Part shown: piece by piece, positions 14,481 to 28,313 of the stretch
Layout: every line of letters starts with the position of its first letter
Numbering within the stretch: position 1 is the first letter of the stretch
Source of the DNA: Citricoccus sp. K5
Lineage (GTDB): Bacteria > Actinomycetota > Actinomycetes > Actinomycetales > Micrococcaceae
Reading direction: 5' to 3'
NCBI RefSeq assembly: GCF_902506195.1
Contig: NZ_LR732817.1
Coordinates: 1,768,985 to 1,832,984 of the forward strand
DNA length: 64,000 bases
Program-made: the position numbers and the translations under genes
The notes under the pieces: model-generated
What the model was told of the DNA's origin: nothing
Seen by the model: the letters and a program-made list of their open reading frames with translations, nothing else
Databases searched by the model: none

Positions 14481-15641
14481 TCAGCTCGAATACGCGGAGT
14501 TCTCATGCACGTAGTCGTGCGTGAGGTCGTTGGTCCAGATGGTCGCGGTGGCCTCGCCCGCGTGCAGGTCGATCACCACGTTCACCTCGCGTGGGGAGAG
14601 GTCCACGAGCTCGCGGTCCTCGCCCACCCCGGAGTCGCGACAGACCTGGACGCCGTTGAAGTGCACGTCGAGACGCTCGGCGTCGAACGGGGCCAGGTCC
14701 TCCGGCACCGTGCCGACGGCGGAGATGACACGCCCCCAGTTCGGGTCCTGGCCGAACACGGCGGCCTTGAACAGGTTGGAGCGGGACACGGCGCGGGCCA
14801 CCGCCTCGGCGGCCTCCTCGGTGCTCGCGTTGACCACCTGGATGGAGATCTCGTGGGCGGCGCCCTCGGCGTCGGCGATCAGTTGCCGCGCCAGGTCCGC
14901 GCAGACCGTGCGCAGTCCCTCCTGGAACTCCGCGGTGTCCGGCCGGGTCCCGGTCGCGCCGGAGGCGAGCAGCGCCACGGTGTCGTTCGTGGACATGCAG
15001 CCATCGGAGTCCGTGCGGTTGAACGTGGTCCGGACCGCCTCGGTCAGGGCCGCGCCCAGGTCCGCTGCGGCCACGACCGCGTCAGTGGTGATGACGCACA
15101 GCATGGTCGCCATTCCCGGTGCGAGCATGCCGGCGCCCTTGGCCATGCCCCCGATCACGTACCCCGGGCCGCGGTGGACCGCGGTCTTGGGCACCGAGTC
15201 CGTGGTCATGATGGCCTCGGCCGCATCGCCACCGCCGTCGGCGGCCAGCGCTTCCGCGGCGGCGGTCACGCCCGGGATCAACCGGTCCATCGGCTGGGGC
15301 AGCCCGATCAGGCCGGTGGAGCACACGAGCACGTCTCCGGCGGAGATCCCCAGCTGTGCGGCAGCATGCTCTGCGGTGACATGCGTGTCCTGGAACCCCT
15401 GGTGACCGGTGGCGGCATTGGCCCCGCCCGAGTTCAGAATCACGGCATCCACTCGTCCGTCCGCGACCACCTGGCGGGACCAGACCACGGGGGCGGCGAC
15501 CACCCGGTTGGTCGTGAAGACGGCGGCCGCGTGGCGGTCCGGTCCGTCGTTCACGACGACGGCCACGTCCGGTTTCCCGGTCGACTTCAGTCCGGCGGCC
15601 ACACCGGCGGCACGGAATCCCTGGGCTGTGGTGACGCTCAT
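14481..15641 (-). CDS. argJ: bifunctional glutamate N-acetyltransferase/ornithine acetyltransferase
   Basis: Recycles the acetyl group from acetylornithine to glutamate. The 386-residue precursor has the self-cleavage site in [20 protein letters not shown], cut between Ala and the nucleophile Thr. The C-terminal half holds [14 protein letters not shown]. The start ATG at 15641 overlaps the argC stop by four bases; the longer frame up to 15839 lies within argC. No argA is visible, consistent with a cyclic acetyl pathway. Confidence 0.95.
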
Positions 15642-16678
15642 GGTGCGATCCCCTGTTGGGTCAGGCCCGTCTCCTCGGCCAGGCCGAGAGCGAGGTTCAT
15701 GGATTGGATGGCGCCGCCAGCGGTCCCCTTGGTCAGGTTGTCCAGGGCGGCGGTGATGATGACGCGGCCGGCGTGCGCGTCCACGGCCAGCTGCATGACC
15801 ACGTGGTTGGAGCCCAACACGGACTGGGTGGTGGGCCACTGTCCCTCGGGCAGCAGGTGGACGAACTGCTCCTCCCCATAGGCCTGCTCCCAGGCGGCAC
15901 GTACCTCGGCGGGGTCCACGCCGGGCTTCAGGCGGGCTGTGGCGGTGGCCAGGATGCCGCGAGGCATCGGCGCCAGCGTTGGGGTGAAGGACACCGTGAC
16001 GGGCTCCCCCGCCGCCTGGGTGAGCCCCTGCTCGATCTCGGGGGTGTGCCGGTGTCCGCCCCCCACGCCATAGGGGCTCATGGAGCCCATGGCCTCACTG
16101 CCCAGCAGGTGCGGCTTGAGGGACTTGCCCGCCCCGGAGGTCCCCGAGGCTGCCACGATCACCACGTCCTCCGGAGCGAGGACGCCGGCGGTGAAACCGG
16201 GGGCGAGGGCGAGCAGACACGTGGTCGGATAGCAGCCCGGGACGGCGATCCGCGACGCCCCGGCGATCTCCGCCCGCTGTCCGGGCAGTTCGGGCAGGCC
16301 GTAGGGCCAGGTCCCGGCGTGGTCGGAGCCGTAGAACCTCTCCCAGGCCTGCGGTGACTGCAGGCGGTGGTCCGCGCCGGCGTCGATCACCAGGGTTCCG
16401 GGCGAGAGCAGCTCGAGCTCGGCGGCGATGACACCGCTGGCGCCGTGCGGCAGGGCCAGGAAGACGACGTCATGGCCGGCCAGCACCTCAGCCGTGGTCT
16501 CCTGCAGGAGGCGATCGGCCAGGGCATGCAGATGAGGCTGGAGAGCACCCAGTCGCTCCCCGGCGTTCGAGTGGGCCGTGATGGCCCCGATCTCCACTTC
16601 GGGGTGGGAGAGGAGAAGGCGCAGGACTTCTCCTCCGGCATATCCGCTGGCGCCGGAGACGGCAACTGTGAGGCTCAT
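15638..16678 (-). CDS. argC: N-acetyl-gamma-glutamyl-phosphate reductase
   Basis: NADPH-dependent reductase and first gene of the argCJBDFR operon. The 346-residue product starts with the Rossmann motif [12 protein letters not shown] and carries the catalytic cysteine in [13 protein letters not shown]. It also has [12 protein letters not shown] and the later [12 protein letters not shown]. The ATG at 16678 lacks a Shine-Dalgarno sequence and lies six bases after the -10 box TAGCAT, so the operon mRNA is probably leaderless at argC. The paired operator overlaps this promoter. Confidence 0.96.
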
Positions 16679-16684
16679 GCGCCC

Positions 16685-16723
16685 ATGCTAGGCGAAATAT
16701 GCAGTGTTGCCAATATTTATGCA
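16685..16723 (-). promoter_or_regulatory. argC promoter overlapped by ARG box pair
   Basis: On the minus strand TTGGCA (16708-16713), a 17-base spacer and TAGCAT (16685-16690) form the promoter, followed six bases later by the argC ATG. Two TATGCA half-sites at 16698-16703 and 16718-16723 start 20 bases apart, identical in spacing to the pair before argG. One lies inside the spacer and one just upstream of the -35. ArgR repression is inferred. Confidence 0.7.
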
Positions 16724-16787
16724 GAGTTGGGCTGCCGTACACCCATCACCGACCCACGGGCCGCCGGGCGCGACTACGGTAGGCACC

Positions 16788-17783
16788 ATGACCGAGACTC
16801 ACCTCCCCAGCACCCAGCATGCCGTTCGCGTCCAAGCCTCCGGGGGGCCCGAGGCGCTGCAGTGGACGGAGGTCCCCGTCCCTTCGCCGGGCCCCGGAGA
16901 GGTCCTGGTCAGGACCGCGGCCGCAGGCCTGAACTTCATCGAGACCTATCAGCGCTCGGGCGTGTACCGGATGCCTCATCCGTTCACTCCCGGATCCGAG
17001 GGTTCGGGGACGGTGGTCGCTCTCGGCCCCGAGGTCGAAGGTGCGTCCGCGGCGGTCGGTGAAGTGGTCGCCACGGCGGCCGGTGCCGGGACCTACGCCG
17101 AATACTTCACCGCCCCGGTGGACCAGTTGCTGCCGGTGCCGAGCGGAGTCGACCCGGCGGAGGCCGCGGCCATCCCCCTGCAGGGCATGACCGCCCACTA
17201 CCTGTGCCGGTCCACCGTGGAGGTCCAGCCGGGCCAGACGGTCCTCGTCCATGCCGGTGCCGGAGGCGTGGGCCTGCTGCTGACCCAGCTGTGCGTGTCC
17301 CACGGCGCCACCGTCATCACCACGGCCTCCACCGAGGAGAAGAAGGCGCTCTCCCGCGCGGCTGGCGCCAGCCACGTCCTCGACTACTCGGGGTTCGCCG
17401 ACGCCGTGCGGGACCTCACCGGTGGACGCGGCGTTGACGCCGTGTTCGACGGGGTCGGCCGGGACACATTCGACGAGTCCCTGGCCTCCCTGCGGATCCG
17501 TGGAACCCTGGCCCTCTTCGGTGGGGCGTCGGGGCCGGTGCCACCAGTGGATCCCCAGCGCCTCAACTCCGCCGGCTCGGTGTTCCTCACCCGCCCCACC
17601 CTGGTGCATCACACATTGACCGCCGAGGAGACGCGGTGGCGGGCCGGGGAGCTGTTCTCCGCCCTCGACGCCGGCACCCTCGACTTCCGGATCGGAGCAA
17701 CCTATCCCCTGGCCGAGGCAGGCCGGGCGCACGGGGACCTCGAATCCCGCCGCACCACCGGAAAGTCCCTGCTGCTGCCTTAG
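16788..17783 (+). CDS. qor: NADPH:quinone oxidoreductase (zinc-independent MDR family)
   Basis: Medium-chain dehydrogenase/reductase of 331 residues that probably reduces quinones with NADPH. Signs are the N-terminal GroES-like part with GLNFIETYQRSGVYRMPHPF, PGSEGSGTVVALG and the family motif PLQGMTAHYL. The nucleotide-binding fold is VLVHAGAGGVGLLLTQL. The zinc-ligand pattern of alcohol dehydrogenases is absent. The start at 16788 has TACGGT ending seven bases upstream and only a weak GGTAGG, so it may be leaderless. It is divergent from argC. Confidence 0.88.
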   Translation: MTETHLPSTQHAVRVQASGGPEALQWTEVPVPSPGPGEVLVRTAAAGLNFIETYQRSGVYRMPHPFTPGSEGSGTVVALGPEVEGASAAVGEVVATAAGAGTYAEYFTAPVDQLLPVPSGVDPAEAAAIPLQGMTAHYLCRSTVEVQPGQTVLVHAGAGGVGLLLTQLCVSHGATVITTASTEEKKALSRAAGASHVLDYSGFADAVRDLTGGRGVDAVFDGVGRDTFDESLASLRIRGTLALFGGASGPVPPVDPQRLNSAGSVFLTRPTLVHHTLTAEETRWRAGELFSALDAGTLDFRIGATYPLAEAGRAHGDLESRRTTGKSLLLP

Positions 17784-17959: not shown

Positions 17960-20900
17960 GTGTCCCCCCATGTGCCCCAGTTGCCCTCCGCTGAGAAGGC
18001 CCCTCCGGTCCGGACCCTGGTCCAGTTGCTGGAGGCCACCGCCCAGCAGCACCCCGAGGCGCCTGCCCTGGACGACGGCGAGACCGTCCTGTCCTACGCG
18101 GAACTGCTGGACGAGGTGAAAGTAACAGGCCGAGCCCTGCACAGTGCCGGCCTCGGCGCCGGGGACCGGATCGGCATCCGCATCCCGTCCGGAACAGTGG
18201 AGCTCTACGTCTCCATCCTGGCCACCCTGTACATCGGCGCCGCCTACGTCCCGGTGGACGCGGACGACCCGGACGAAAGGGCCCGGCTGGTGTTCTCCGA
18301 GGCCAAGGTGGCCGCCATCCTCTCCGGTCAGGGCCGGGTGCAGACATCCTCGAAGCGACCCAAGCCATTCCCCAGTCCCCGTCCACCCGGGCCGGAGGAC
18401 GATGCCTGGATCATCTTCACGTCCGGGTCCACCGGCACGCCCAAGGGCGTGGCCGTCTCCCACCGCAACGCCGCGGCCTTCGTGGACGCCGAGGCGCGCA
18501 TCTTCCTCCAGGACGACCCCCTCGGACCCGGCGACCGGGTTCTGGCCGGACTCTCCGTCGCGTTTGATGCCTCCTGCGAGGAGATGTGGCTGGCCTGGCG
18601 CCATGGTGCCTGCCTCGTCCCCGCCCCGCGCTCCCTGGTCCGCTCCGGCATGGACCTCGGCCCCTGGCTCGTCTCCCGTTCCATCAACGTGGTGTCCACC
18701 GTGCCGACGCTGGCCGCCCTCTGGCCGCCGGAGGCCCTGGAGAACGTGCGGCTGCTGATCTTCGGCGGTGAGGCCTGCCCGCCGGACCTGGCCGCCCGCC
18801 TGGCCGAGGACGACCGTGAGCTCTGGAACACCTATGGGCCCACTGAGGCCACCGTGGTGGCCTGCACCGCCCCCATGGACGGCACCGGACCGGTGCGGAT
18901 CGGTCTGCCCCTGGACGGCTGGGACCTGGCCGTCGTGGACCCCGCCACCGGCATCCCCGTGGCCGAGGGCGAGACGGGCGAGCTCATCATCGGCGGGGTC
19001 GGACTGGCCCGCTACCTCGACCCGGCCAAGGACGCCGAGAAGTATGCCCCGATGGAGTCCCTCGGGTGGGACCGCGCCTACCGTTCCGGGGACCTCGTGG
19101 TCTGGGACCCGGACGGGCTGCTGTTCGTGGGCCGCGCCGATGAGCAGGTCAAGCTCGGCGGCCGCCGCATCGAACTCGGAGAGGTCGATGCGGCCCTCCA
19201 GGCCCTGCCGGGCGTCGCCGGCGGGGCCGCCGCGGTCCAGACGACCCCGGCCGGAACCCAACTGCTCATCGGGTACCTGGCGGTGCCGGCGTCGACCACC
19301 GGACGCGGCGAACCCGACTTGAAGGCCTTCCGCCGGCTCCTCGAGAAGGAATTGCCCGGAGCACTGGTCCCCCGCCTGGTCACCGTGGAGACCCTGCCCA
19401 CCAAGACCTCCGGCAAGGTGGACCGCAACGCCCTGCCCTGGCCGCTGCCGGGTCAGTCGGGAGCTGGTGCGGGCCACGGCGGCTCAGGCCCGAGCACCGA
19501 CCTTCCTGTGGATCCCGAGTCCCCCGGCGGCTGGGTGCTGACCCAGTGGGCGGACGTGCTGGGCGCCACCCCCGAAGACCTGGATAGCGATTTCTTCGCC
19601 TCCGGCGGCGGGTCATTGGCGGCCGCCCAGCTCGTCTCCCGCCTGCGCACCCGCTACCCCTCCGTCACCGTGCGGGACGTCTACGCCCACCCCCGTGCCG
19701 GAGCCCTGCTCGAGGCCGTCACCGGCAATGACGGCAGGCCGGTGGAACCTGCTGAGCCCGTGGAGCCGCGCCCGGTGGCCCGTACCGCCCGCAAGGCCCA
19801 GGTATTCCAGACGCTGATGGGCATCCCCCTGGTCATCCTCGTGGCCCTGCGCTGGGTCGTCTACCTGGCCGCCGGGTCCAACCTGGCCGCGGCCTGGGGT
19901 GTCCTGCCCGGCGCTCCGACCGTCTCCTGGTGGTGGGTGCTGGCCGGCTGGCTCGTGTTCGTGTCCCCGCCGGGCCGCATGGCCCTCTCCGTGGTGGCGG
20001 CCCGGCTGCTGCTGCGCGGGATCCAACCCGGCTCCTATCCGCGGTCCGGCAAGGTCCATCTACGCCTGTGGCTGGCGCAGCACATCTCCGACCTCGTGGA
20101 CCCGGTGTCCCTGGGCGGCGCCCTGTGGGTCCCCACCTACGCCCGGCTGCTCGGTGCCCGGATCGGCAAGCACGTGGACCTGCACTCGGTCCCGCCCATC
20201 ACGGGGCTGTTGGACCTCGGCTCCGGCGGCTCCGTCGAGCCCGAGGTCGACCTGTCCGGTTACTGGATCGACGGTGACGTGGTGCACATCGGCGCCATCA
20301 CTGTCGGCGAGGACGCCGTGGTCGGTTCCCGCTCCACGCTGATGCCCGGCGCCGTCATCGGCACGGGGACCGTCATCCAGCCCGGCTCCACGGTGACCGG
20401 GAAGGCCAAGGACGGCCTCGAGTACGTCGGTTCCCCCGCCCAGCGTCTCGGCAAGGCCAAGTACGACGGCCCGAACATCGACCCGCCGCGCGCCACCGGA
20501 TGGCTCGTGCTGTCCACCATCGGCTCCGGTGCCCTGGCCCTGCTGCCAGTCGCCGCGGCTTTGGCAGCCGCCCTCGTAGGCCTGTGGTCCCTGACCTGGT
20601 GGCCGGACTGGGAGTCCGGCGGGGCCGGCGCTGCTCCCGAGACCGTGCTCGGCTCCGCCTGGCGGCTGTTGGCCGCCAGCCCCCTGATCGCCGCCGTGTG
20701 GTTCGGCGCGAACATGCTCTTCACCGTGGTGTCCGTGCGGCTGCTGTCCCTCGGCGTCGCCGAGGGCTACCACGCCGTCCGCTCCCGCATCGGCTGGCAA
20801 CTGTGGGCCACGGAACGTGTCCTGGACACCGCCCGTGACCTGCTCTTCCCGCTGTACGCCTCCCGGTTCACCCCGGTGTGGTTGCGCTGGCTGGGGGCCG

Positions 20901-22108
20901 AGGTCGGTGCCAACGTGGAGGCATCCACCGTCATCCTGCAGCCGGCCCTGACCCAGATCGGCGATGGTGCCTTCCTGGCCGATGACACCATGATCGGCTC
21001 CTATGAGCTGCAGCGCGGCTGGATGTACGTGGGGCAGGCGAAGGTCGGCAAGAAGTCCTTCGTCGGCAACTCCGGTATGGTCGCGGCCGGACGCAAGCTC
21101 TCCAAGAACGCCCTCGTGGCCGTGCTGTCCGCCACCCCGAAGAAGACCAAGGCGGGCTCCTCCTGGCTGGGGTCACCTCCCGTGCGTCTTCGCCGGACCG
21201 AGGTCGAGGCGGACGACGCCCTGACTTATGATCCGCCGGCACGGCTCAAGCTGGTGCGCAGCGCCTGGGAGTGCCTGCGCCTGCTGGCCGTCTGGTGCTC
21301 CGTGGTCATCGCCGTGGCCGTGGTGGTGGCACTCAACGGGCTCGCCCAAGTGGGCGGCGGGGCAGCTGACGGCGCCGGGGCCGGGGGCTGGTGGCTCGCG
21401 GTCCTGCTCGGCGGAGTGGTGCTCATGGCCGCCGGCGCGTTGGCGGCCGGCTCCTCCGTCCTGGCCAAGAAGGTCCTCGTCGGCCGGATCAAGGCCGGCG
21501 AGCATCCCCTCTGGAGCTCCTTCATCTGGCGCAACGAGGTGGTGGACAACTTTATCGAGGTGGTCTCCGCCCCGTGGTTCGGGCGGATCGCCTCCGGCAC
21601 TCCCTCCCTCGTCTGGTGGCTGCGCGCCCTCGGAGCCCGGATCGGCCACGGCGTGTGGTGCGAGTCCTACTGGCTGCCCGAGGCCGACCTGGTGACCCTG
21701 GGCCACTCCTCGACCGTGAACAGGGGCTGTGTGGTCCAGACCCACCTGTTCCATGACCGCGTCATGTCCCTGGATACCGTGCAGCTGGGCGAGGGTTCGA
21801 CCCTCGGTCCGAACTCCGTGATCCTTCCGGCGGCCTCCATCGACGACGGCGCCACGGTGGGCGCGGGTTCGCTCATCATGCGCGGTGAGATGGTCCCGGG
21901 CCACTCCTGGTGGGCCGGCAACCCGGTGGCGCCGTGGAAGGGACCGAAGGTGAAGGGCCGCGCTGCGGCCATCACTAGACTGGAACGGCTCGAGGAGAAG
22001 GCCGAGAAGGCAGCCGAGAGGGCCGCCGAAAGGCGATCCTCCGAGCGAGACGCTGAGACAACAGCCGCGACTGCGGCCGAAGACCCTGAGGAGCACAACC
22101 GCCCGTGA
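17960..22108 (+). CDS. Pls/PosA-type membrane non-ribosomal peptide synthetase
   Basis: A 1382-residue single-module synthetase of the epsilon-poly-lysine synthetase (Pls) type. Order: adenylation domain (about 15-495; FTSGSTGTPKG at 153-163, YGPTEAT at 292-298, TSGKVDR at 483-489), carrier domain with the phosphopantetheine Ser552 in GGGSL, then three soluble blocks with left-handed beta-helix-like repeats (about 725-815, 975-1060, 1220-1320). The blocks are separated by six predicted membrane helices (about 617-638, 655-685, 846-877, 903-930, 1107-1130, 1143-1170). It ends in a charged Ala/Glu/Arg coiled tail. This A-T-TM-C1-TM-C2-TM-C3 plan is that of Pls, which makes amino-acid homopolymers without a thioesterase. 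Aligned by eye to GrsA, the specificity residues are D203 A204 E207 S246 I267 G269 T291 V299 V300 K486, near the lysine code DAESIGSVCK. GTG start; a TAAGAT -10-like box lies at 17872-17877. The stop overlaps the next gene. Confidence 0.9.
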   Translation: MSPHVPQLPSAEKAPPVRTLVQLLEATAQQHPEAPALDDGETVLSYAELLDEVKVTGRALHSAGLGAGDRIGIRIPSGTVELYVSILATLYIGAAYVPVDADDPDERARLVFSEAKVAAILSGQGRVQTSSKRPKPFPSPRPPGPEDDAWIIFTSGSTGTPKGVAVSHRNAAAFVDAEARIFLQDDPLGPGDRVLAGLSVAFDASCEEMWLAWRHGACLVPAPRSLVRSGMDLGPWLVSRSINVVSTVPTLAALWPPEALENVRLLIFGGEACPPDLAARLAEDDRELWNTYGPTEATVVACTAPMDGTGPVRIGLPLDGWDLAVVDPATGIPVAEGETGELIIGGVGLARYLDPAKDAEKYAPMESLGWDRAYRSGDLVVWDPDGLLFVGRADEQVKLGGRRIELGEVDAALQALPGVAGGAAAVQTTPAGTQLLIGYLAVPASTTGRGEPDLKAFRRLLEKELPGALVPRLVTVETLPTKTSGKVDRNALPWPLPGQSGAGAGHGGSGPSTDLPVDPESPGGWVLTQWADVLGATPEDLDSDFFASGGGSLAAAQLVSRLRTRYPSVTVRDVYAHPRAGALLEAVTGNDGRPVEPAEPVEPRPVARTARKAQVFQTLMGIPLVILVALRWVVYLAAGSNLAAAWGVLPGAPTVSWWWVLAGWLVFVSPPGRMALSVVAARLLLRGIQPGSYPRSGKVHLRLWLAQHISDLVDPVSLGGALWVPTYARLLGARIGKHVDLHSVPPITGLLDLGSGGSVEPEVDLSGYWIDGDVVHIGAITVGEDAVVGSRSTLMPGAVIGTGTVIQPGSTVTGKAKDGLEYVGSPAQRLGKAKYDGPNIDPPRATGWLVLSTIGSGALALLPVAAALAAALVGLWSLTWWPDWESGGAGAAPETVLGSAWRLLAASPLIAAVWFGANMLFTVVSVRLLSLGVAEGYHAVRSRIGWQLWATERVLDTARDLLFPLYASRFTPVWLRWLGAEVGANVEASTVILQPALTQIGDGAFLADDTMIGSYELQRGWMYVGQAKVGKKSFVGNSGMVAAGRKLSKNALVAVLSATPKKTKAGSSWLGSPPVRLRRTEVEADDALTYDPPARLKLVRSAWECLRLLAVWCSVVIAVAVVVALNGLAQVGGGAADGAGAGGWWLAVLLGGVVLMAAGALAAGSSVLAKKVLVGRIKAGEHPLWSSFIWRNEVVDNFIEVVSAPWFGRIASGTPSLVWWLRALGARIGHGVWCESYWLPEADLVTLGHSSTVNRGCVVQTHLFHDRVMSLDTVQLGEGSTLGPNSVILPAASIDDGATVGAGSLIMRGEMVPGHSWWAGNPVAPWKGPKVKGRAAAITRLERLEEKAEKAAERAAERRSSERDAETTAATAAEDPEEHNRP

Positions 22109-23649
22109 GTGTGGAAACCCCGGTTCTGCCCGATCCGTACATCCCTGGATCGGGGACGCCGGACTTCACGGTGGGCCACTACGACCTGCAGTTGGAGGTC
22201 AAGCTGGCGGCCAATCGGATCGCCGGGAAGGCCCGCCTCGAGGGGACCGTCCTGCGGCCGGCCAAGCGGATCGAGCTCGATCTGCATGAGCTCTCGGTCA
22301 GCAAGGTCACCGCTGCCTCGGAGGGCCGTACCGTGAAGGTCGCCAAGTCCGCTGTGCGCCGGGGCCGGCTGGTCGTCGACCTGGCCACCAGGCTCGACGC
22401 CGGGGCCCCCCTGACCCTCGAGGTCACCTACGCCGGGGTGCCGAAGATGCTGAACGGGCCCTGGGGTGAGATCGGCTGGGAAGAACTGGACGACGGGGTG
22501 CTGGTGGCGGGCCAGCCCAATGGCGCAGCCACCTGGTTCCCGTGCGTTGACCACCCGTCCGTGAAGTCCACCTACCACTTCACCGTGGCCACGGACGCCG
22601 GCTACCTGCCGGTCTGCAACGGCCTGCCCACCGGTCACCGCCGCCGGTCCTCCCGTGAGGAGTGGACCTGGGAGCTGCGTGACCCGGCCCCCACCTACCT
22701 GGTCACCCTGCAGATCGGCCGGTACCAACTGGTCGCCGTGCCGGAACACCCGACCGGGCGCCACCGCTCCACCGTCTCCTTCCGGCAGCGGGTGCAGGGC
22801 CTGGTGCAGGACCTGCTGCCGGGAACGGACGGGCAATGGCGGCCCGGCCATGCCCCGGAGGGCGGCGACGGCCAGGAGGACCAGAGCCGGTACGAGGGCG
22901 AGATCCACGGCGAGAGGGCCCCCGCGGGCCTGGCCGAGAACGAGCCGGCTCCCGTGTTCCTGGCGGTCTCGCCGGCCCTGCAGGACCGCGCCCTGGAGGC
23001 CCTGGGGCGACAGACCGAGATGATGGCGTGCTTCAGCTGGCACTTCGGCCCCTACCCCTTCGACCGGTACACGGCCGTGGTGACGGACGACGTGCTGGAG
23101 ATCCCGCTGGAGGCGGCGTCCCTGTCCATCTTCGGGGCGAATCACCTGACGGGTTCCTGGGCCGCCGAGCGGCTGGTGGCCCACGAACTGGCGCACCAGT
23201 GGTTCGGCAACGCGCTGACCCTGCGCCGGTGGCAGGACATCTGGTTGCACGAGGGGTTCGCCTGCTACAGCGAGTGGCTGTGGGGCGCGGAGTCGGGGCA
23301 TGGCACGATGACCTCGCTGGCCCGCACCGCCTGGCGAGGACTGGCGCTGAAGGCCAAGGACCTGGTGGTGGCGGACCCGGGGCCCGAGCTGATGTTCGAC
23401 GACCGCATCTACAAGCGCGGTGCCCTGACCCTGTTCGCCCTCAACCGGGCCGTGGGCGACGAGGTGTTCACGGACCTGATCCGCTCCTGGGTGGCTGAGC
23501 ACCGGCACTCCTCCGTGGACACAGGGATGTTCCTGGACCACGCCGATCGCCAGGCCGAGGCGGCCGGACACCCGGCCGGTCACGCACGTGCGGTCATGCG
23601 GCCCTGGCTGTGCGAGCCCGCGCTGCCGGCCTTCCCCACGTCACGCTGA
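22105..23649 (+). CDS. M1-family zinc aminopeptidase
   Basis: A 514-residue metallopeptidase related to aminopeptidase N but shorter, lacking the C-terminal ERAP-like helical domain. Zinc ligands are HELAH (360-364) and Glu383 in LHEGFACYSEW. The transition-state tyrosine is plausibly in DDRIYKRGALTLFAL. The exopeptidase motif GxMEN is replaced by IPLEAAS (about 333-339). Residues 240-280 form a Gly/Glu/Asp-rich insertion between the N-terminal beta domain and the catalytic domain. No signal peptide is seen. It begins with GTG overlapping the synthetase stop (GTGA), so the two proteins are made from one mRNA. The epsilon-poly-lysine-degrading enzyme of Streptomyces albulus is also a zinc aminopeptidase, so trimming or detoxifying the polymer is a reasonable inference. 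Confidence 0.88.
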   Translation: MSVETPVLPDPYIPGSGTPDFTVGHYDLQLEVKLAANRIAGKARLEGTVLRPAKRIELDLHELSVSKVTAASEGRTVKVAKSAVRRGRLVVDLATRLDAGAPLTLEVTYAGVPKMLNGPWGEIGWEELDDGVLVAGQPNGAATWFPCVDHPSVKSTYHFTVATDAGYLPVCNGLPTGHRRRSSREEWTWELRDPAPTYLVTLQIGRYQLVAVPEHPTGRHRSTVSFRQRVQGLVQDLLPGTDGQWRPGHAPEGGDGQEDQSRYEGEIHGERAPAGLAENEPAPVFLAVSPALQDRALEALGRQTEMMACFSWHFGPYPFDRYTAVVTDDVLEIPLEAASLSIFGANHLTGSWAAERLVAHELAHQWFGNALTLRRWQDIWLHEGFACYSEWLWGAESGHGTMTSLARTAWRGLALKAKDLVVADPGPELMFDDRIYKRGALTLFALNRAVGDEVFTDLIRSWVAEHRHSSVDTGMFLDHADRQAEAAGHPAGHARAVMRPWLCEPALPAFPTSR

Positions 23650-24381
23650 CGCCGCGGGAGTTCCTTGGAGTTCGGGCCCGGACGGAGGCCGGTCCCCGGC
23701 GGGTGGCAGGAGCACGACAGCGCCGAGCAGGTGATCGGGGGCGGACCCCCCTGGCCAGTCACGGTCTGGGACGATGACGGAACCGGGCCGGTCCGGCACC
23801 GCCAGCTCCAGGGTCCCGGGCAGTGTGACCGCCACGTCTGCCGGGTCGCCGGTGAAACCGGTGCCATGGGCTTTGGCAAGGCCTTCCTTGGCGCACCACA
23901 GCAGGCCGCGGGTTCCCGGGCGCACGCGCTCCTCCAGGGCACCGAGCAGCCGCTCCTCCTCCTCAGAGAAGCCGACGCCGGCCAGTTCAGAGGGCTCGGC
24001 GAAGGCCGCGGACCCGGCCTGCTCGAGGTCGACCCCGATCCGCCAGCCCGCCACCGTGTCCGGGACCCCGATCCAGGCGGTGGCGAGCCATCCTCCGGCC
24101 CGGCTGAAGCTCACCGCCGGCAGCGGCGCGGCCAGGTCCCCCGGTGCGAGGGCGTCCGGGCCCCGACGGCGCCGGGCCAACCGGCTGTGACGCAGCTCCG
24201 GCTGGCCGTGATCCTCGGATCCACAGTGGGAACAGCGGTGGATGACCTCGAAGGTCCCCGGCCGGTGCCCCAGGGACACGGCAAGGAAGTCGAGGGCCTC
24301 ACGGCGCTGGTCACCGGTCCGGGGACCAGTGACCACCACGTGCCATCCCGGGTCCGACGCCGGCCCGTCACCTGTGCCCAT
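23641..24381 (-). CDS. 4'-phosphopantetheinyl transferase (Sfp/AcpT superfamily)
   Basis: Transfers phosphopantetheine from CoA to carrier-protein serines. The 246-residue product has the magnesium/CoA motif IGVDLEQ and the helix WCAKEGLAKAHGTGF (family pattern WxxKEA). An N-terminal CSHCGSEDHGQPEL segment typical of actinobacterial members is present. I chose ATG 24381 (AGTAGGG just upstream) over the GTG at 24441, which abuts the pheT stop without a ribosome site. It is convergent with the M1 peptidase and their 3' ends overlap by nine bases. It lies behind pheS-pheT, so it may be transcribed with them. The neighbouring carrier domain (Ser552) is the obvious client. Confidence 0.87.
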   Translation of the reverse strand: MGTGDGPASDPGWHVVVTGPRTGDQRREALDFLAVSLGHRPGTFEVIHRCSHCGSEDHGQPELRHSRLARRRRGPDALAPGDLAAPLPAVSFSRAGGWLATAWIGVPDTVAGWRIGVDLEQAGSAAFAEPSELAGVGFSEEEERLLGALEERVRPGTRGLLWCAKEGLAKAHGTGFTGDPADVAVTLPGTLELAVPDRPGSVIVPDRDWPGGSAPDHLLGAVVLLPPAGDRPPSGPELQGTPAASA

Positions 24382-24442
24382 GGTCCCTACTTTCCCTGAC
24401 TGCCCTGCCGGCGGAGTCCCCGGCCTGGTGGCCGAATACACG

Positions 24443-27064
24443 CTAGCGCTGCACGGCTCCGTGGCGACGGGCGGCCAGTTCGGTGGCGGCCGTTCGGGCC
24501 GCGGAGGCCTCGTCCGCGGTCAGGGTCCGGTCCGGGGCACGGAAGCGCAGCGAGAAGGCCAGCGACTGGTGACCGTCCTCCACACCCTGCCCGGAGTAGA
24601 CGTCGAAGAGCCTGACGTCCTCGAGCAGCTCCCCCGCCCCCTCGCGCAGGGTCTCCAGGACATCTCCCGCCACCACGTCGTCCGCGACCACGAGGGCCAC
24701 GTCCTGGCTGGTGAGTGGGAAGGTGGACATCGGCCGGGCCACCACCACGTCGGCTGCTGCGGCGATCAAGGCGTCCAGGTCGAGCTCCATGGCCACGGTG
24801 CGGGCGGGCAGGTCGGTGTCCTCGAGCCAGGACGGCAGCAGCTCTCCGGCAACCCCGATGAGGGCGCCGGCGGAATCAACAGAACCGGCCAACCGCAGCA
24901 CGGCGGTGCGGCCCGGGTGGAAGGCCTGATGGGATCCCTGGGCGACCTGCAGGTCTACGCCGAGGATCGCCGCTGCGTCCAGGGCGGCACCGAGGGCGTC
25001 CTGCCAGTCGTACGTACGGGGCTGGTGGCCGGTGCCGGGTGCGGAGTCGTGTCCGGTGAGGACGGCGGCCAGGTGCCGCGGCTGGTCCGGGATGCCGGCC
25101 TCCAGGTCCGCCAGCACCTCGTCCGCGGGGCGGGCGCCCAGCGGCGGGATCGTGGCCGAGCCCAACTGCTCACCGGGCAGGAAGACCAGACCCGACTCAT
25201 AGAGGGCCAGATCCCGGAATCCACGGGAGTGATTGCGGCGGGCGATGTCCAGCAGCCCGGGCAACAGGGAGGTGCGCAAGTACCCGAACTCGGCGGAGAT
25301 CGGGTTGGCCAGGTGCACCATCCTCTGCGCGGCGCCCGTGTCCTCGGTGGCGGAGCCGAAGAAGCGGTTCTGCGCCTCGGACACGAAGGGGTAGGCCAGC
25401 ACCTCGGTCAGGCCTGCGTCGGCCAGGCCCTGGACCACCCGGCGCCGGGCTGCCTGTTCCCGGGTCAGCCCGCGCCCCGGAGGGGCCACCGGGAGGGTGG
25501 ACGGGATCTGGTCGTACCCGATCAGACGCGCGATCTCCTCGACCAGGTCATCCCGGATCTCCAGATCGTGGCGCCAGGTCGGGGCGGTGACCGTGAAGAC
25601 CGTCCCGGACGGGCCGGCGTCGGGACGTCCCGCGTCCGGTTCCGTGCCGCGCTCGACCGTAGCGCCCAGGTCCCGCAGGGTCGTCTCTATCTGTTCCTCG
25701 GTGTACTCGATGCCCATGCGGGCCCCCGGGTAGGAAGCCGGCAGCTCGATGACGTTCGGCTCCGGACGGGTGCCCACTTCGGTGATCCCCGCGTCAGCGG
25801 TGCCGCCGGCCAGCTGGACGAGCAGCTGGACGGCGCGTTCGGCCGCCTCGTCCGCGATCTCCCAGTCCACGCCGCGCTCGTTGCGCTTGGAGGCCTCGGA
25901 GGGCAGGCGGTGGCGGCGGCGGGTGCGGCCCATGGACACGGGGTCGAAGTGCGCGGACTCGATGACGATCGTGGTGGTGGAATCGGACACCTCGGTCTCG
26001 CCGCCGCCCATGACGCCGGCCAGGCCGATCGGTCCACGGTCGTCGGTGATGAGCAGGTCCTCGGCGGAGAGCGTCCGCGACTTGCCGTCCAGGGTGGTCA
26101 GCGTCTCGCCCTCGGCGGCGCGGCGGACCACGATCGGGCCCTGCAGCTTCGCCGCGTCATAGAAGTGCAGCGGCTGACCGAGTTCCCACATGACGTAGTT
26201 GGAGATGTCCACGGACAGGGAGATGGACCGCATGCCGGCCAGGCGCAGACGCTGGGCCATCCACGGCGGGGTGGGACGGCTCGGGTCGATGCCGGTGACG
26301 GTGCGTGTCACGAAGCGGTCGCAGCCGGGGACGCCGTAGATGGGACGCTCGTCCTCCAGACGCACCGGGTGCCCCTGGCCGTTCGGCTCGGGAGCCGTGA
26401 CCAGGGAAGCCGGATCGGTGAAGGGCAGCCCGGTGGCGTGCGCGTACTCACGGACCACGCCACGGACGGAGAAGGCGTAGCTGCGGTCCGCGGTCACGTT
26501 GATCTCGGCGGCCTCGTCCCGCAGGTGCAGGAGGTCGTACACGTCCGTGCCGGGCTCCGGGTCATTGCCGTTCTCGGGCGAGAAGCCGAGGGAGGACAGC
26601 ACGATGATGCCGTCGTGGTCCTCACCCAGGCCCAGCTCGCGCGCCGAGGCGATCATCCCGGCGGAAAGGTGGCCATAGGTCTGACGCGGCGTGATGCGGA
26701 AGTCACCGGGGAGCACGGAGCCGGGCAGGGTGACGACGACCTTGTCCCCCACCTGGAAGTTGTGGGCGCCGCAGACGATGCCCTGCACTCCGGACGGGTC
26801 GATGCCCTCGCCGGAGAGAGTCTGTTCCTGGCCCTCGGGCACCACGCGGACCTGGCACCAGTTGATGGTCTTGCCGTTCTTCTGCGGCTCGGGGACCATC
26901 TCCAGGACCTCGCCGACCACGAGGGGGCCGGAGAGCTCGTCCAGGGGACGGTGGACGTCCTCCTCCTCGAAGCCGACCCTCACCAGGTCGGCCATGACGT
27001 CCTCGGCGGTCGCGTCCGCCGGGACCGGGACATATTCACGTAGCCATGACAGCGGGATGCGCAC
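24443..27064 (-). CDS. pheT: phenylalanine--tRNA ligase, beta subunit
   Basis: Large subunit of the alpha2-beta2 synthetase, 873 residues. The N-terminal EMAP/tRNA-binding domain is visible in GPLVVGEVLEMVPEPQKNGK and CGAHNFQVGDKVVVTLPGS. The B3/B4 editing region is followed by B5 (around PSYPGARMGIEYTEEQIE). A C-terminal ferredoxin-fold anticodon-binding domain ends the protein (ARPMSTFPLTSQDVALVV and FDVYSGQGVEDGHQSLAFSL). It starts six bases after the pheS stop. Length is slightly above the usual 800-850. Confidence 0.97.
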   Translation of the reverse strand: MRIPLSWLREYVPVPADATAEDVMADLVRVGFEEEDVHRPLDELSGPLVVGEVLEMVPEPQKNGKTINWCQVRVVPEGQEQTLSGEGIDPSGVQGIVCGAHNFQVGDKVVVTLPGSVLPGDFRITPRQTYGHLSAGMIASARELGLGEDHDGIIVLSSLGFSPENGNDPEPGTDVYDLLHLRDEAAEINVTADRSYAFSVRGVVREYAHATGLPFTDPASLVTAPEPNGQGHPVRLEDERPIYGVPGCDRFVTRTVTGIDPSRPTPPWMAQRLRLAGMRSISLSVDISNYVMWELGQPLHFYDAAKLQGPIVVRRAAEGETLTTLDGKSRTLSAEDLLITDDRGPIGLAGVMGGGETEVSDSTTTIVIESAHFDPVSMGRTRRRHRLPSEASKRNERGVDWEIADEAAERAVQLLVQLAGGTADAGITEVGTRPEPNVIELPASYPGARMGIEYTEEQIETTLRDLGATVERGTEPDAGRPDAGPSGTVFTVTAPTWRHDLEIRDDLVEEIARLIGYDQIPSTLPVAPPGRGLTREQAARRRVVQGLADAGLTEVLAYPFVSEAQNRFFGSATEDTGAAQRMVHLANPISAEFGYLRTSLLPGLLDIARRNHSRGFRDLALYESGLVFLPGEQLGSATIPPLGARPADEVLADLEAGIPDQPRHLAAVLTGHDSAPGTGHQPRTYDWQDALGAALDAAAILGVDLQVAQGSHQAFHPGRTAVLRLAGSVDSAGALIGVAGELLPSWLEDTDLPARTVAMELDLDALIAAAADVVVARPMSTFPLTSQDVALVVADDVVAGDVLETLREGAGELLEDVRLFDVYSGQGVEDGHQSLAFSLRFRAPDRTLTADEASAARTAATELAARRHGAVQR

Positions 27065-27070
27065 GGGTGA

Positions 27071-28141
27071 TCAGATCTCCATTCCGAAGTGCTGGGAGAA
27101 GCGGACGTCGCCCTCGATCATGTCTCGCATGTCGAGGACCTCATTGCGGAACATCAGGGTGCGTTCCACGCCCATGCCGAAGGCGAACCCGGAGTAGACC
27201 TCCGGGTCCAGTCCGGCGGCACGCAGCACATTCGGGTGCACCATGCCGCAGCCGCCCCATTCGATCCACTGCGGACCGCCCTTGGCGCCGGGGTGCCAGA
27301 TGTCCATCTCCGCGCTGGGCTCGGTGAAGGGGAAGAAGTTGGAGCGCAGCCGGATCGTGGCCTCGGGGCCGAACATCTGGCGGGCGAAGTACTCCAGGGT
27401 GCCGCGCAGGTCCGCCATGGTCAGTCCCCTGTCAACCGCCAGACCCTCGAACTGGTGGAAGACCGGGGTGTGGGTGGCGTCCAGCTCATCCGTGCGGAAG
27501 GTGCGGCCGGGCGAGAGCACGTACACGGGGACGCCACGCTCGAGCATGGCGCGCATCTGCACGGGCGAGGTCTGCGTCCGCAGCAGGAGGTGTGACTCGG
27601 CCGGGTCCACGAAGAAGGTGTCCTGCATCTCGCGCGCCGGGTGGTCCGGCTTGAAGTTCAGCGCATCGAAGTTGTACCACTCCGACTCGAGCTCGGGTCC
27701 CTCGGCGATCTCCCAGCCCATGCCGATGAAGATGTCCGAGACGCGCTCCTGCAGCACGGAGAGCGGGTGGCGGGCACCCACACGCCGGCGGCGCACGGCC
27801 GTGGTGACGTCCACGGTCTCCTCGACGAGCATGCGGGCGGCGTGCTCGGCCTCGAGGACCTCGGTGCGGGCAGCGAGCGCCCGTTCCATGGACTTGCGGG
27901 CCCCGCCCATGAGCTTGCCGGCCACGGCCTTCTGGTCCTTGACCAGCTTGCCGATCCCCCGGTTCGCCAGCGTCAGCGGCGCCTTCTCCCCCGTGTGGGC
28001 CAGACGTGCCGCCTTGAGTTCATCGAGGTCGGCGGCGGCGGCAAAGGCCGCCAGGGCCCGCTCGACGGCGGCGTGCACCGCGGTCTCGTCGGCCGGGGAG
28101 ATCTCCGGCCCGTTGGGGTCCGACTGGGGGGTTTCCGTCAT
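27071..28141 (-). CDS. pheS: phenylalanine--tRNA ligase, alpha subunit
   Basis: Catalytic subunit of 356 residues. The N-terminal coiled coil is followed by the class II core: motif 2 in [21 protein letters not shown] and motif 3 near [14 protein letters not shown]. The segment [19 protein letters not shown] is typical of PheS. I chose ATG 28141; a TTG at 28150 is also in frame but has GAAGG too close. A TAGACT -10-like box at 28246-28251 (minus) would give a leader of about 100 bases. That leader contains the short hairpin CGTAG-AG-CTACG followed by TTTTTT, which may be an attenuator. Confidence 0.96.
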
Positions 28142-28313
28142 GGTGGGCAACGACCTTCATGTTCTGAGGTTGCGAATGTAAAAAACGTAGCTCTACGGTT
28201 TTGACCTTGGGTGTGGCCACCCGCACCCGGCGGAAGGCCTTGGCCAGTCTAATGGCCGGAGGGAGGGCACGGCATACCGACGACGCCTCGGCCTGTCCGG
28301 GCAGAATGGGCCC

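What the first reader, a model, noticed from the sequence alone, without database searches (positions are those of the whole stretch)
17960..24381. Pls/PosA-type synthetase island with a predicted lysine code
Seen: a single-module A-T synthetase with six membrane helices and three C-terminal soluble blocks, coupled by GTGA to an M1 peptidase, with a PPTase immediately convergent. The specificity residues, aligned by eye to GrsA with identical spacing from positions 235 to 299, read D-A-E-S-I-G-T-V-V-K. The published lysine code of bacitracin synthetase is DAESIGSVCK, 8 of 10 the same. Known: Pls of Streptomyces albulus makes epsilon-poly-lysine with this architecture. Inference: this organism may make an epsilon-poly-lysine-like or other cationic homopolymer, and the three genes encode synthesis, trimming and activation.
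Basis: partly seen in the sequence, partly recalled or inferred. Interest (0 to 1): 0.72.

Follow-up and report, generated by a model that had tools for sequence, protein, structure and literature searches.

The report
Polylysine synthetase operon in an actinobacterium
This stretch carries the genes with which an actinobacterium very probably makes epsilon-polylysine, a known natural preservative, together with a matching polymer-cutting enzyme and an activating enzyme; it is a new member of a known and widespread system rather than something new.

Summary
Window 17960-22108 encodes a complete Pls/PosA-family synthetase (TIGR02353, 678 bits). Its closest solved relative is the epsilon-poly-L-lysine synthetase A domain 7wew (669 bits; ornithine-type 8g95 181). 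The pocket, DAESIGTVVK, equals 7wew's at all ten positions, better than the bacitracin match. The coupled M1 peptidase (22105-23649) is an orthologue of PldII, the polylysine-degrading enzyme of S. albulus. Such pls-peptidase operons are published for Streptomyces and Corynebacterium, and 69 of 80 named loci fetched have the M1 gene behind pls. So: a new member of a known kind, predicted monomer lysine; no product measured. New in detail: the block is a syntenic locus beside argC/qor, not a recent island; a PPTase lies near it in Micrococcales; the peptidase lacks the signal-like N-terminus seen in 8 of 66 named orthologues, all Streptomyces; and a second lysine-code synthetase in the same genome is coupled to dapA and an HGSNAT-like acyltransferase instead of M1.

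The parts
17960..22108 (+). pls: A-T-(TM/LbH)x3 epsilon-poly-L-lysine synthetase, 1382 aa; A domain residues ~18-495, T ~525-587, polymerisation domain ~615-1323
18566..19417 (+). span of the specificity positions DAESIGTVVK (residues 203, 204, 207, 246, 267, 269, 291, 299, 300 and K486)
   Evidence: identical in 7wew
19745..21949 (+). polymerisation domain as modelled (residues 596-1330): three beta-helical blocks and six membrane helices; H1262 (21743-21745) is its only His invariant in 56 of 56 aligned sequences
22105..23649 (+). pldII-type two-domain M1 metallopeptidase, 514 aa, coupled to pls by GTGA; site E336, H360-E361-x-x-H364, E383, Y436; insert ~229-276 rare among orthologues and of low model confidence; no signal-like N-terminus
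23641..24381 (-). Sfp-type 4'-phosphopantetheinyl transferase, convergent with the M1 gene (frame opens at GTG 24441)
16704..17783 (+). zinc-type quinone oxidoreductase (qor-like), conserved upstream neighbour
15638..16678 (-). argC, first of argCJBD: conserved flank
24443..27064 (-). pheT, flank on the other side (pheS 27071-28150)

Best explanation
An epsilon-poly-L-lysine operon. The PPTase loads pantetheine on the carrier domain of Pls. The A domain adenylates L-lysine and loads it. The membrane-bound polymerisation domain, which resembles a fused trimer of beta-helix acyltransferases, joins lysines through alpha-carboxyl to epsilon-amino bonds and passes the chain to or through the membrane. 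The coupled M1 enzyme cuts the polymer: it would recognise the free alpha-amino group that every residue of this isopeptide keeps, and so protects the cell or recycles chains. Shown: gene content, coupling, pocket identity, intact conserved residues, orthology to PldII, conserved linkage. Inferred: the product, its export, the peptidase's mode and cytoplasmic place, and the PPTase-Pls pairing.
For: TIGR02353 678 bits. Top PDB match is polylysine synthetase, 668.8 bits, pocket 10 of 10 identical. Pls tree (96 of 100 aligned sequences; four short ones dropped): the window lies among DAESIGTVVK enzymes with M1 partners; codes DFECLSVVTK and DGESVSVVNK are far off. No departure from the near-invariant C-terminal residues of 99 relatives. 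L024 (93% to 7wew in the A domain) carries a 467-aa M1 overlapping pls by 4 nt; its length equals the published 1404-bp pldII, and its D44, T45, D173, K174, T194 and E281 match the six PldII residues named in PMC9223678, so the M1 family is PldII. M1 site conserved in 40 of 40. M1 behind pls in 69 of 80 named loci; 4 of the other 11 run off the contig in or just after pls. A C. variabile Pls, 51% identical to Streptomyces Pls and also in a peptidase operon, made epsilon-PL in S. coelicolor (PMC8117764, Results section).
Against: No chemistry. The 80 named loci were found with a polylysine synthetase A domain and only the best 80 were kept, so 79 of 80 sharing the code is partly selection. Seven named loci with room on the contig have no M1 behind pls. 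C. variabile itself made no detectable epsilon-PL, nor did C. glutamicum carrying its gene, so the locus may be silent. Identity of the window Pls to the L024 enzyme is only 52%.
Confidence: 0.88

Rival explanations
1. Same architecture but another monomer: ornithine, diaminobutyrate, diaminopropionate or beta-lysine.
For: The family does make these polymers (PMC10522769), and NRPS codes are degenerate. The argCJBD genes next door belong to the ornithine/arginine pathway and could be read as ornithine supply.
Against: Position 2 is Ala, as in Pls, not Met or Phe; pocket identical to 7wew; clade placement. The arg genes are on the other strand, and argC and argJ flank the locus in relatives too. 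No Dab, Dap or aminomutase gene among the ten window proteins scanned (the rest of the window was not scanned).
Confidence: 0.07
2. A silent locus: a conserved operon that makes no polymer under ordinary growth. (Not exclusive of the best explanation.)
For: C. variabile produced none in culture and its Pls was not detected in the proteome (PMC8117764).
Against: No broken domain or lost conserved residue; kept in all seven congeneric genomes searched, beside the same flanks.
Confidence: 0.3
3. The M1 protein is an ordinary aminopeptidase that is only a neighbour of pls.
For: Closest solved structure is a two-domain M1 peptidase of Deinococcus with amino-acid and peptide ligands (6a8z, 6koz and others).
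Against: GTGA coupling, linkage in 69 of 80 named loci and in 18 of 21 genomes, own included, that have the family over its cut-off, orthology to PldII.
Confidence: 0.06

Closest known systems
pls-pldII operon of Streptomyces albulus (epsilon-poly-L-lysine)
   Same: Domain order, pocket, translational coupling to an M1 peptidase
   Different: 52% identity to the S. albulus-like L024; the window peptidase lacks the RR-plus-hydrophobic N-terminus; it has a convergent PPTase and argC/pheT flanks
Corynebacterium variabile pls-peptidase operon (PMC8117764)
   Same: Non-Streptomyces Pls in an operon with a peptidase; the paper also reports Pls homologues in Arthrobacter, Micrococcus, Brevibacterium and others
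   Different: Its DNA was not compared here; the word 'phosphopantetheinyl' does not occur in its main text
PosA delta-poly-L-ornithine synthetase (Acinetobacter baumannii)
   Same: Family and predicted fold of the polymerisation domain
   Different: Code DMEHNGTVSK; described as a single-gene operon
M1dr two-domain M1 peptidase (6a8z, 6koz)
   Same: Two-domain fold, TMt about 0.9
   Different: 26% identity; no link to a polymer known to me

Membership tests
Pls/PosA cationic homopolymer synthetase | A-T followed by the TIGR02353 terminal domain over its cut-off | tested here: met
   678.2 bits against 423.1; A and T by Pfam
Pls/PosA cationic homopolymer synthetase | six membrane helices and three tandem beta-helix blocks | tested here: met
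epsilon-poly-L-lysine synthetase (Pls) | lysine pocket as in 7wew | tested here: met
   10 of 10
epsilon-poly-L-lysine synthetase (Pls) | falls with Pls and not with the Dab/Dap-like or unknown-code types | tested here: met
   tree; PosA itself and proven Dab/Dap synthetases were not in the tree
epsilon-poly-L-lysine synthetase (Pls) | makes epsilon-PL | not testable with these tools
   needs chemistry
PldII-type degrading enzyme | M1 peptidase coupled to pls, full M1 site | tested here: met
   4-nt overlap; E336, H360, E361, H364, E383, Y436 in 40 of 40
PldII-type degrading enzyme | outside the cell membrane (reported for S. albulus PldII; not known to define the family) | tested here: inconclusive
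   no signal-like N-terminus by a simple rule; no dedicated predictor was run
PldII-type degrading enzyme | degrades epsilon-PL | not testable with these tools
   needs an assay
Sfp-type PPTase | ACPS domain with its GVDxE-like and KE motifs (motifs recalled) | tested here: met
   33.7 bits against 25; both patterns found

The most novel reading that the evidence does not exclude
Polylysine-type synthetases come with one of two exclusive partners. Lysine-code enzymes like the window's carry an M1 depolymerase, exported in one Streptomyces group but cytoplasmic elsewhere, so that it polices polymer that was not exported. Others, including a second lysine-code copy in this very genome, carry an HGSNAT-like membrane acyltransferase that may cap the polymer's amines during export (8 of the 13 examined loci without M1 in own genome and relatives). 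One cell would then make two differently handled lysine polymers. Against it: six named Streptomyces/Kitasatospora loci have the window's code and neither partner.
Probability: 0.25. Interest if true: 0.55.

Novelty: new member of a known kind. Interest (0 to 1): 0.3.

Why it matters
It adds a well-supported predicted producer of epsilon-polylysine, a food preservative, in bacteria with genomes of 3 to 4 Mb, and a PPTase linkage that may matter for heterologous production. The M1 alignment points to a zinc site that differs from the one modelled in print for PldII. The two-partner pattern gives a direct test of how cells survive making a cationic antimicrobial.

Tried and rejected
Recent island: rejected. 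The pls-M1 block lies beside qor and argC in 7 of 7 congeneric loci fetched (pheT seen in 5 of 7; the other two stretches end near the PPTase) and in further genera.

PPTase as a mere fixture of pheT: not upheld. A PPTase is found near pls without pheT matched in the fetched stretch (L055, L063, L092), and pls lies near pheT with no PPTase found in L122 and L140 (also none near in G015 and G019). It was not found in the 71 named loci outside Micrococcales, but the model was grown from the window protein and may miss divergent ones.

First M1 count by open frames (62 of 81 rows) was replaced, because it missed frames that open far upstream; tblastn gave 69 of 80. Seven loci with room on the contig lack M1: L029, L033, L034, L036, L049, L083 (Streptomyces/Kitasatospora) and L070. 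L052 gave two rows because its pls is broken into two frames; it was not mended. L131 (the separate M1 of G011) holds no pls and was left out's count.

Published PldII active site: PMC9223678 (passages) models zinc at D44/T45/D173/K174 and catalysis at T194/E281. Of those six columns only K174 is kept (39 of 40); the M1 motif is invariant in 40 of 40. I follow the M1 motif.

Literature on the PPTase link and on the HGSNAT or dapA partner: searches showed nothing on it (listings only; one returned no paper). The library lacks most subscription papers, so this does not show that they are unreported.

Not examined: further TIGR02353 places in relatives listed but not fetched with flanks (G003:C4, several in G006, G015:C14 and C1). 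The structure comparison of the C-terminal model tested mainly its first block.

Full report
What is there. The window is 64 kb of a 3.88-Mb, 9-contig genome. Placement next to a MAG called Micrococcus and near Arthrobacter loci suggests Micrococcales; no name is given. Window 17960-24441 holds three genes. pls (1382 aa) has an AMP-binding domain, a carrier domain and the TIGR02353 terminal domain. The next gene overlaps its stop by four bases and is an M1 peptidase. A PPTase converges on it, the 3' ends overlapping by 9 bases.

The code. By alignment the ten positions read DAESIGTVVK. The alignment to 7wew, a polylysine synthetase A domain, shows the same letters at all ten. The score to 7wew is 668.8 bits; to the ornithine-type A domain 8g95 (a shorter construct, 414 residues) it is 181.4. 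PMC10522769 (passages; outline; sections 13, 10 and 14) gives PosA as DMEHNGTVSK and attributes chain-length choice to position 2, Ala in Pls.

Is it intact? Every column listed as near-invariant (polar, Gly, Pro or Trp; over 96%) from residue 600 on, across 99 relatives, keeps the consensus in the window. H1262 is the only His of that domain invariant in 56 of 56 aligned sequences, a candidate for the condensing residue (inference). The AlphaFold2 model (mean pLDDT 90.3) has six membrane helices and beta-helical blocks, and matches hexapeptide acyltransferases, as published for PosA.

The peptidase. L024, a Streptomyces locus 93% identical to 7wew in the A domain, has a 467-aa M1 gene overlapping pls by 4 nt. 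Its length equals the published 1404-bp pldII, and all six residues named for PldII in PMC9223678 (passages) match by letter and number. So PldII belongs to this M1 family. Across 40 orthologues, window included, E336, H360, E361, H364, E383 and Y436 never vary. The model is a two-domain M1 (mean pLDDT 88.2), nearest to M1dr. Without the C-terminal domain that closes larger M1 enzymes (recalled), and with a free alpha-amine on each residue of an isopeptide, such an enzyme could cut inside the chain; that is inference, consistent with the 'endo-type' label in PMC9223678. Of the 66 named M1 proteins whose start could be read (three more M1 loci gave no start), eight have an RR-plus-hydrophobic N-terminus; all eight are Streptomyces, while three other Streptomyces (L048, L060, L064) and the window lack it. 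This rests on a simple rule, not on a signal predictor.

How common. 79 of 80 share the window's code and one, L070, has DAESIGTVIK; this is partly selection. 69 of 80 have M1 behind pls; four of the other 11 run out of contig in or just after pls, seven lack it. Of 39 genomes in the relatives search (own included), 21 have the family over its cut-off, and 18 of those 21 have an M1 match next to a copy. PF01648 matches over the cut-off lie within 6 kb beyond M1, convergent, in 13 of those 18. Among named loci a PPTase near pls was found in 7 of the 9 that I assign to Micrococcales (five convergent beyond M1, one on the same strand in L092, one upstream of pls in L068) and in 0 of the other 71. 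The own genome has one region with condensation-domain matches (five matches, C1:823213-830937), and a PF01648 gene lies about 5 kb from it.

Locus. In congeneric genomes argC and qor lie beside the operon in 7 of 7 stretches, and pheT is seen in 5 of 7. argC, qor and pheT recur together in L094, L119, L122, L135 and L140. It is a long-held locus in these bacteria, though pls loci of other families lack these flanks in the stretches fetched.

The second copy. G000:C1 2755896-2757878 marks another full synthetase (L104:5759-9898 -), code DAESIGTVIK. Its stop overlaps a dapA (TIGR00674, 252 bits against 206), followed by an HGSNAT-like acyltransferase (PF07786, 39 bits against 22). The genome has another dapA over the cut-off, at C1:767566. 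Of 31 family loci in own genome and relatives that were fetched with flanks, 18 (window included) have M1 and no HGSNAT-like gene adjacent (one, L139, has such a gene about 7 kb before the end of pls), 8 have an HGSNAT-like gene downstream on the same strand and no M1, and 5 have neither adjacent (two of them, L112 and L133, have one 5-6 kb away on the other strand). Of the 80 named loci 69 have M1, one (L070) has the HGSNAT-like gene, none has both, and ten have neither, four of these at contig ends.

Known or new. pls-pldII is in print for Streptomyces (PMC9223678, passages) and a pls-peptidase operon for Corynebacterium variabile; Pls homologues with pockets identical or highly similar to Pls are in print for Arthrobacter, Micrococcus and others (PMC8117764, Results section). 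The window is a new member of that kind.

Noticed in passing
L104:3520-9898 (G000:C1, second synthetase of the same genome): Second lysine-code synthetase (DAESIGTVIK) coupled to its own dapA and an HGSNAT-like membrane acyltransferase, with no M1 peptidase; same three genes in L106 and L108.
   Followed up: partly
L070, L104, L106, L108, L110, L113, L115, L130, L132: HGSNAT-like acyltransferase gene downstream of Pls-family synthetases on the same strand; not found adjacent to those with M1.
   Followed up: partly
L112:3287-11819, also L120:7083-9992: Split synthetase: a protein with two carrier domains plus the polymerisation domain but no A domain by Pfam; in L112 beside a separate A-T protein, a TauD-like dioxygenase, and PALP and OCD genes that recall diaminopropionate synthesis.
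   Followed up: partly
L115:7776-12675: Synthetase with code DGESVSVVNK (close to DGESISVVNK, printed in PMC10522769 as unassigned) next to a dapA-like gene and an HGSNAT-like gene.
   Followed up: no
L110, L113, L114: Synthetases with code DFECLSVVTK; L110 lies beside a class-III aminotransferase, which would fit a diaminobutyrate-type polymer.
   Followed up: no
window:22105-23649 and L024: Of the six zinc and catalytic residues modelled for PldII in PMC9223678 only K174 is conserved (39 of 40), while the M1 motif is invariant.
   Followed up: yes
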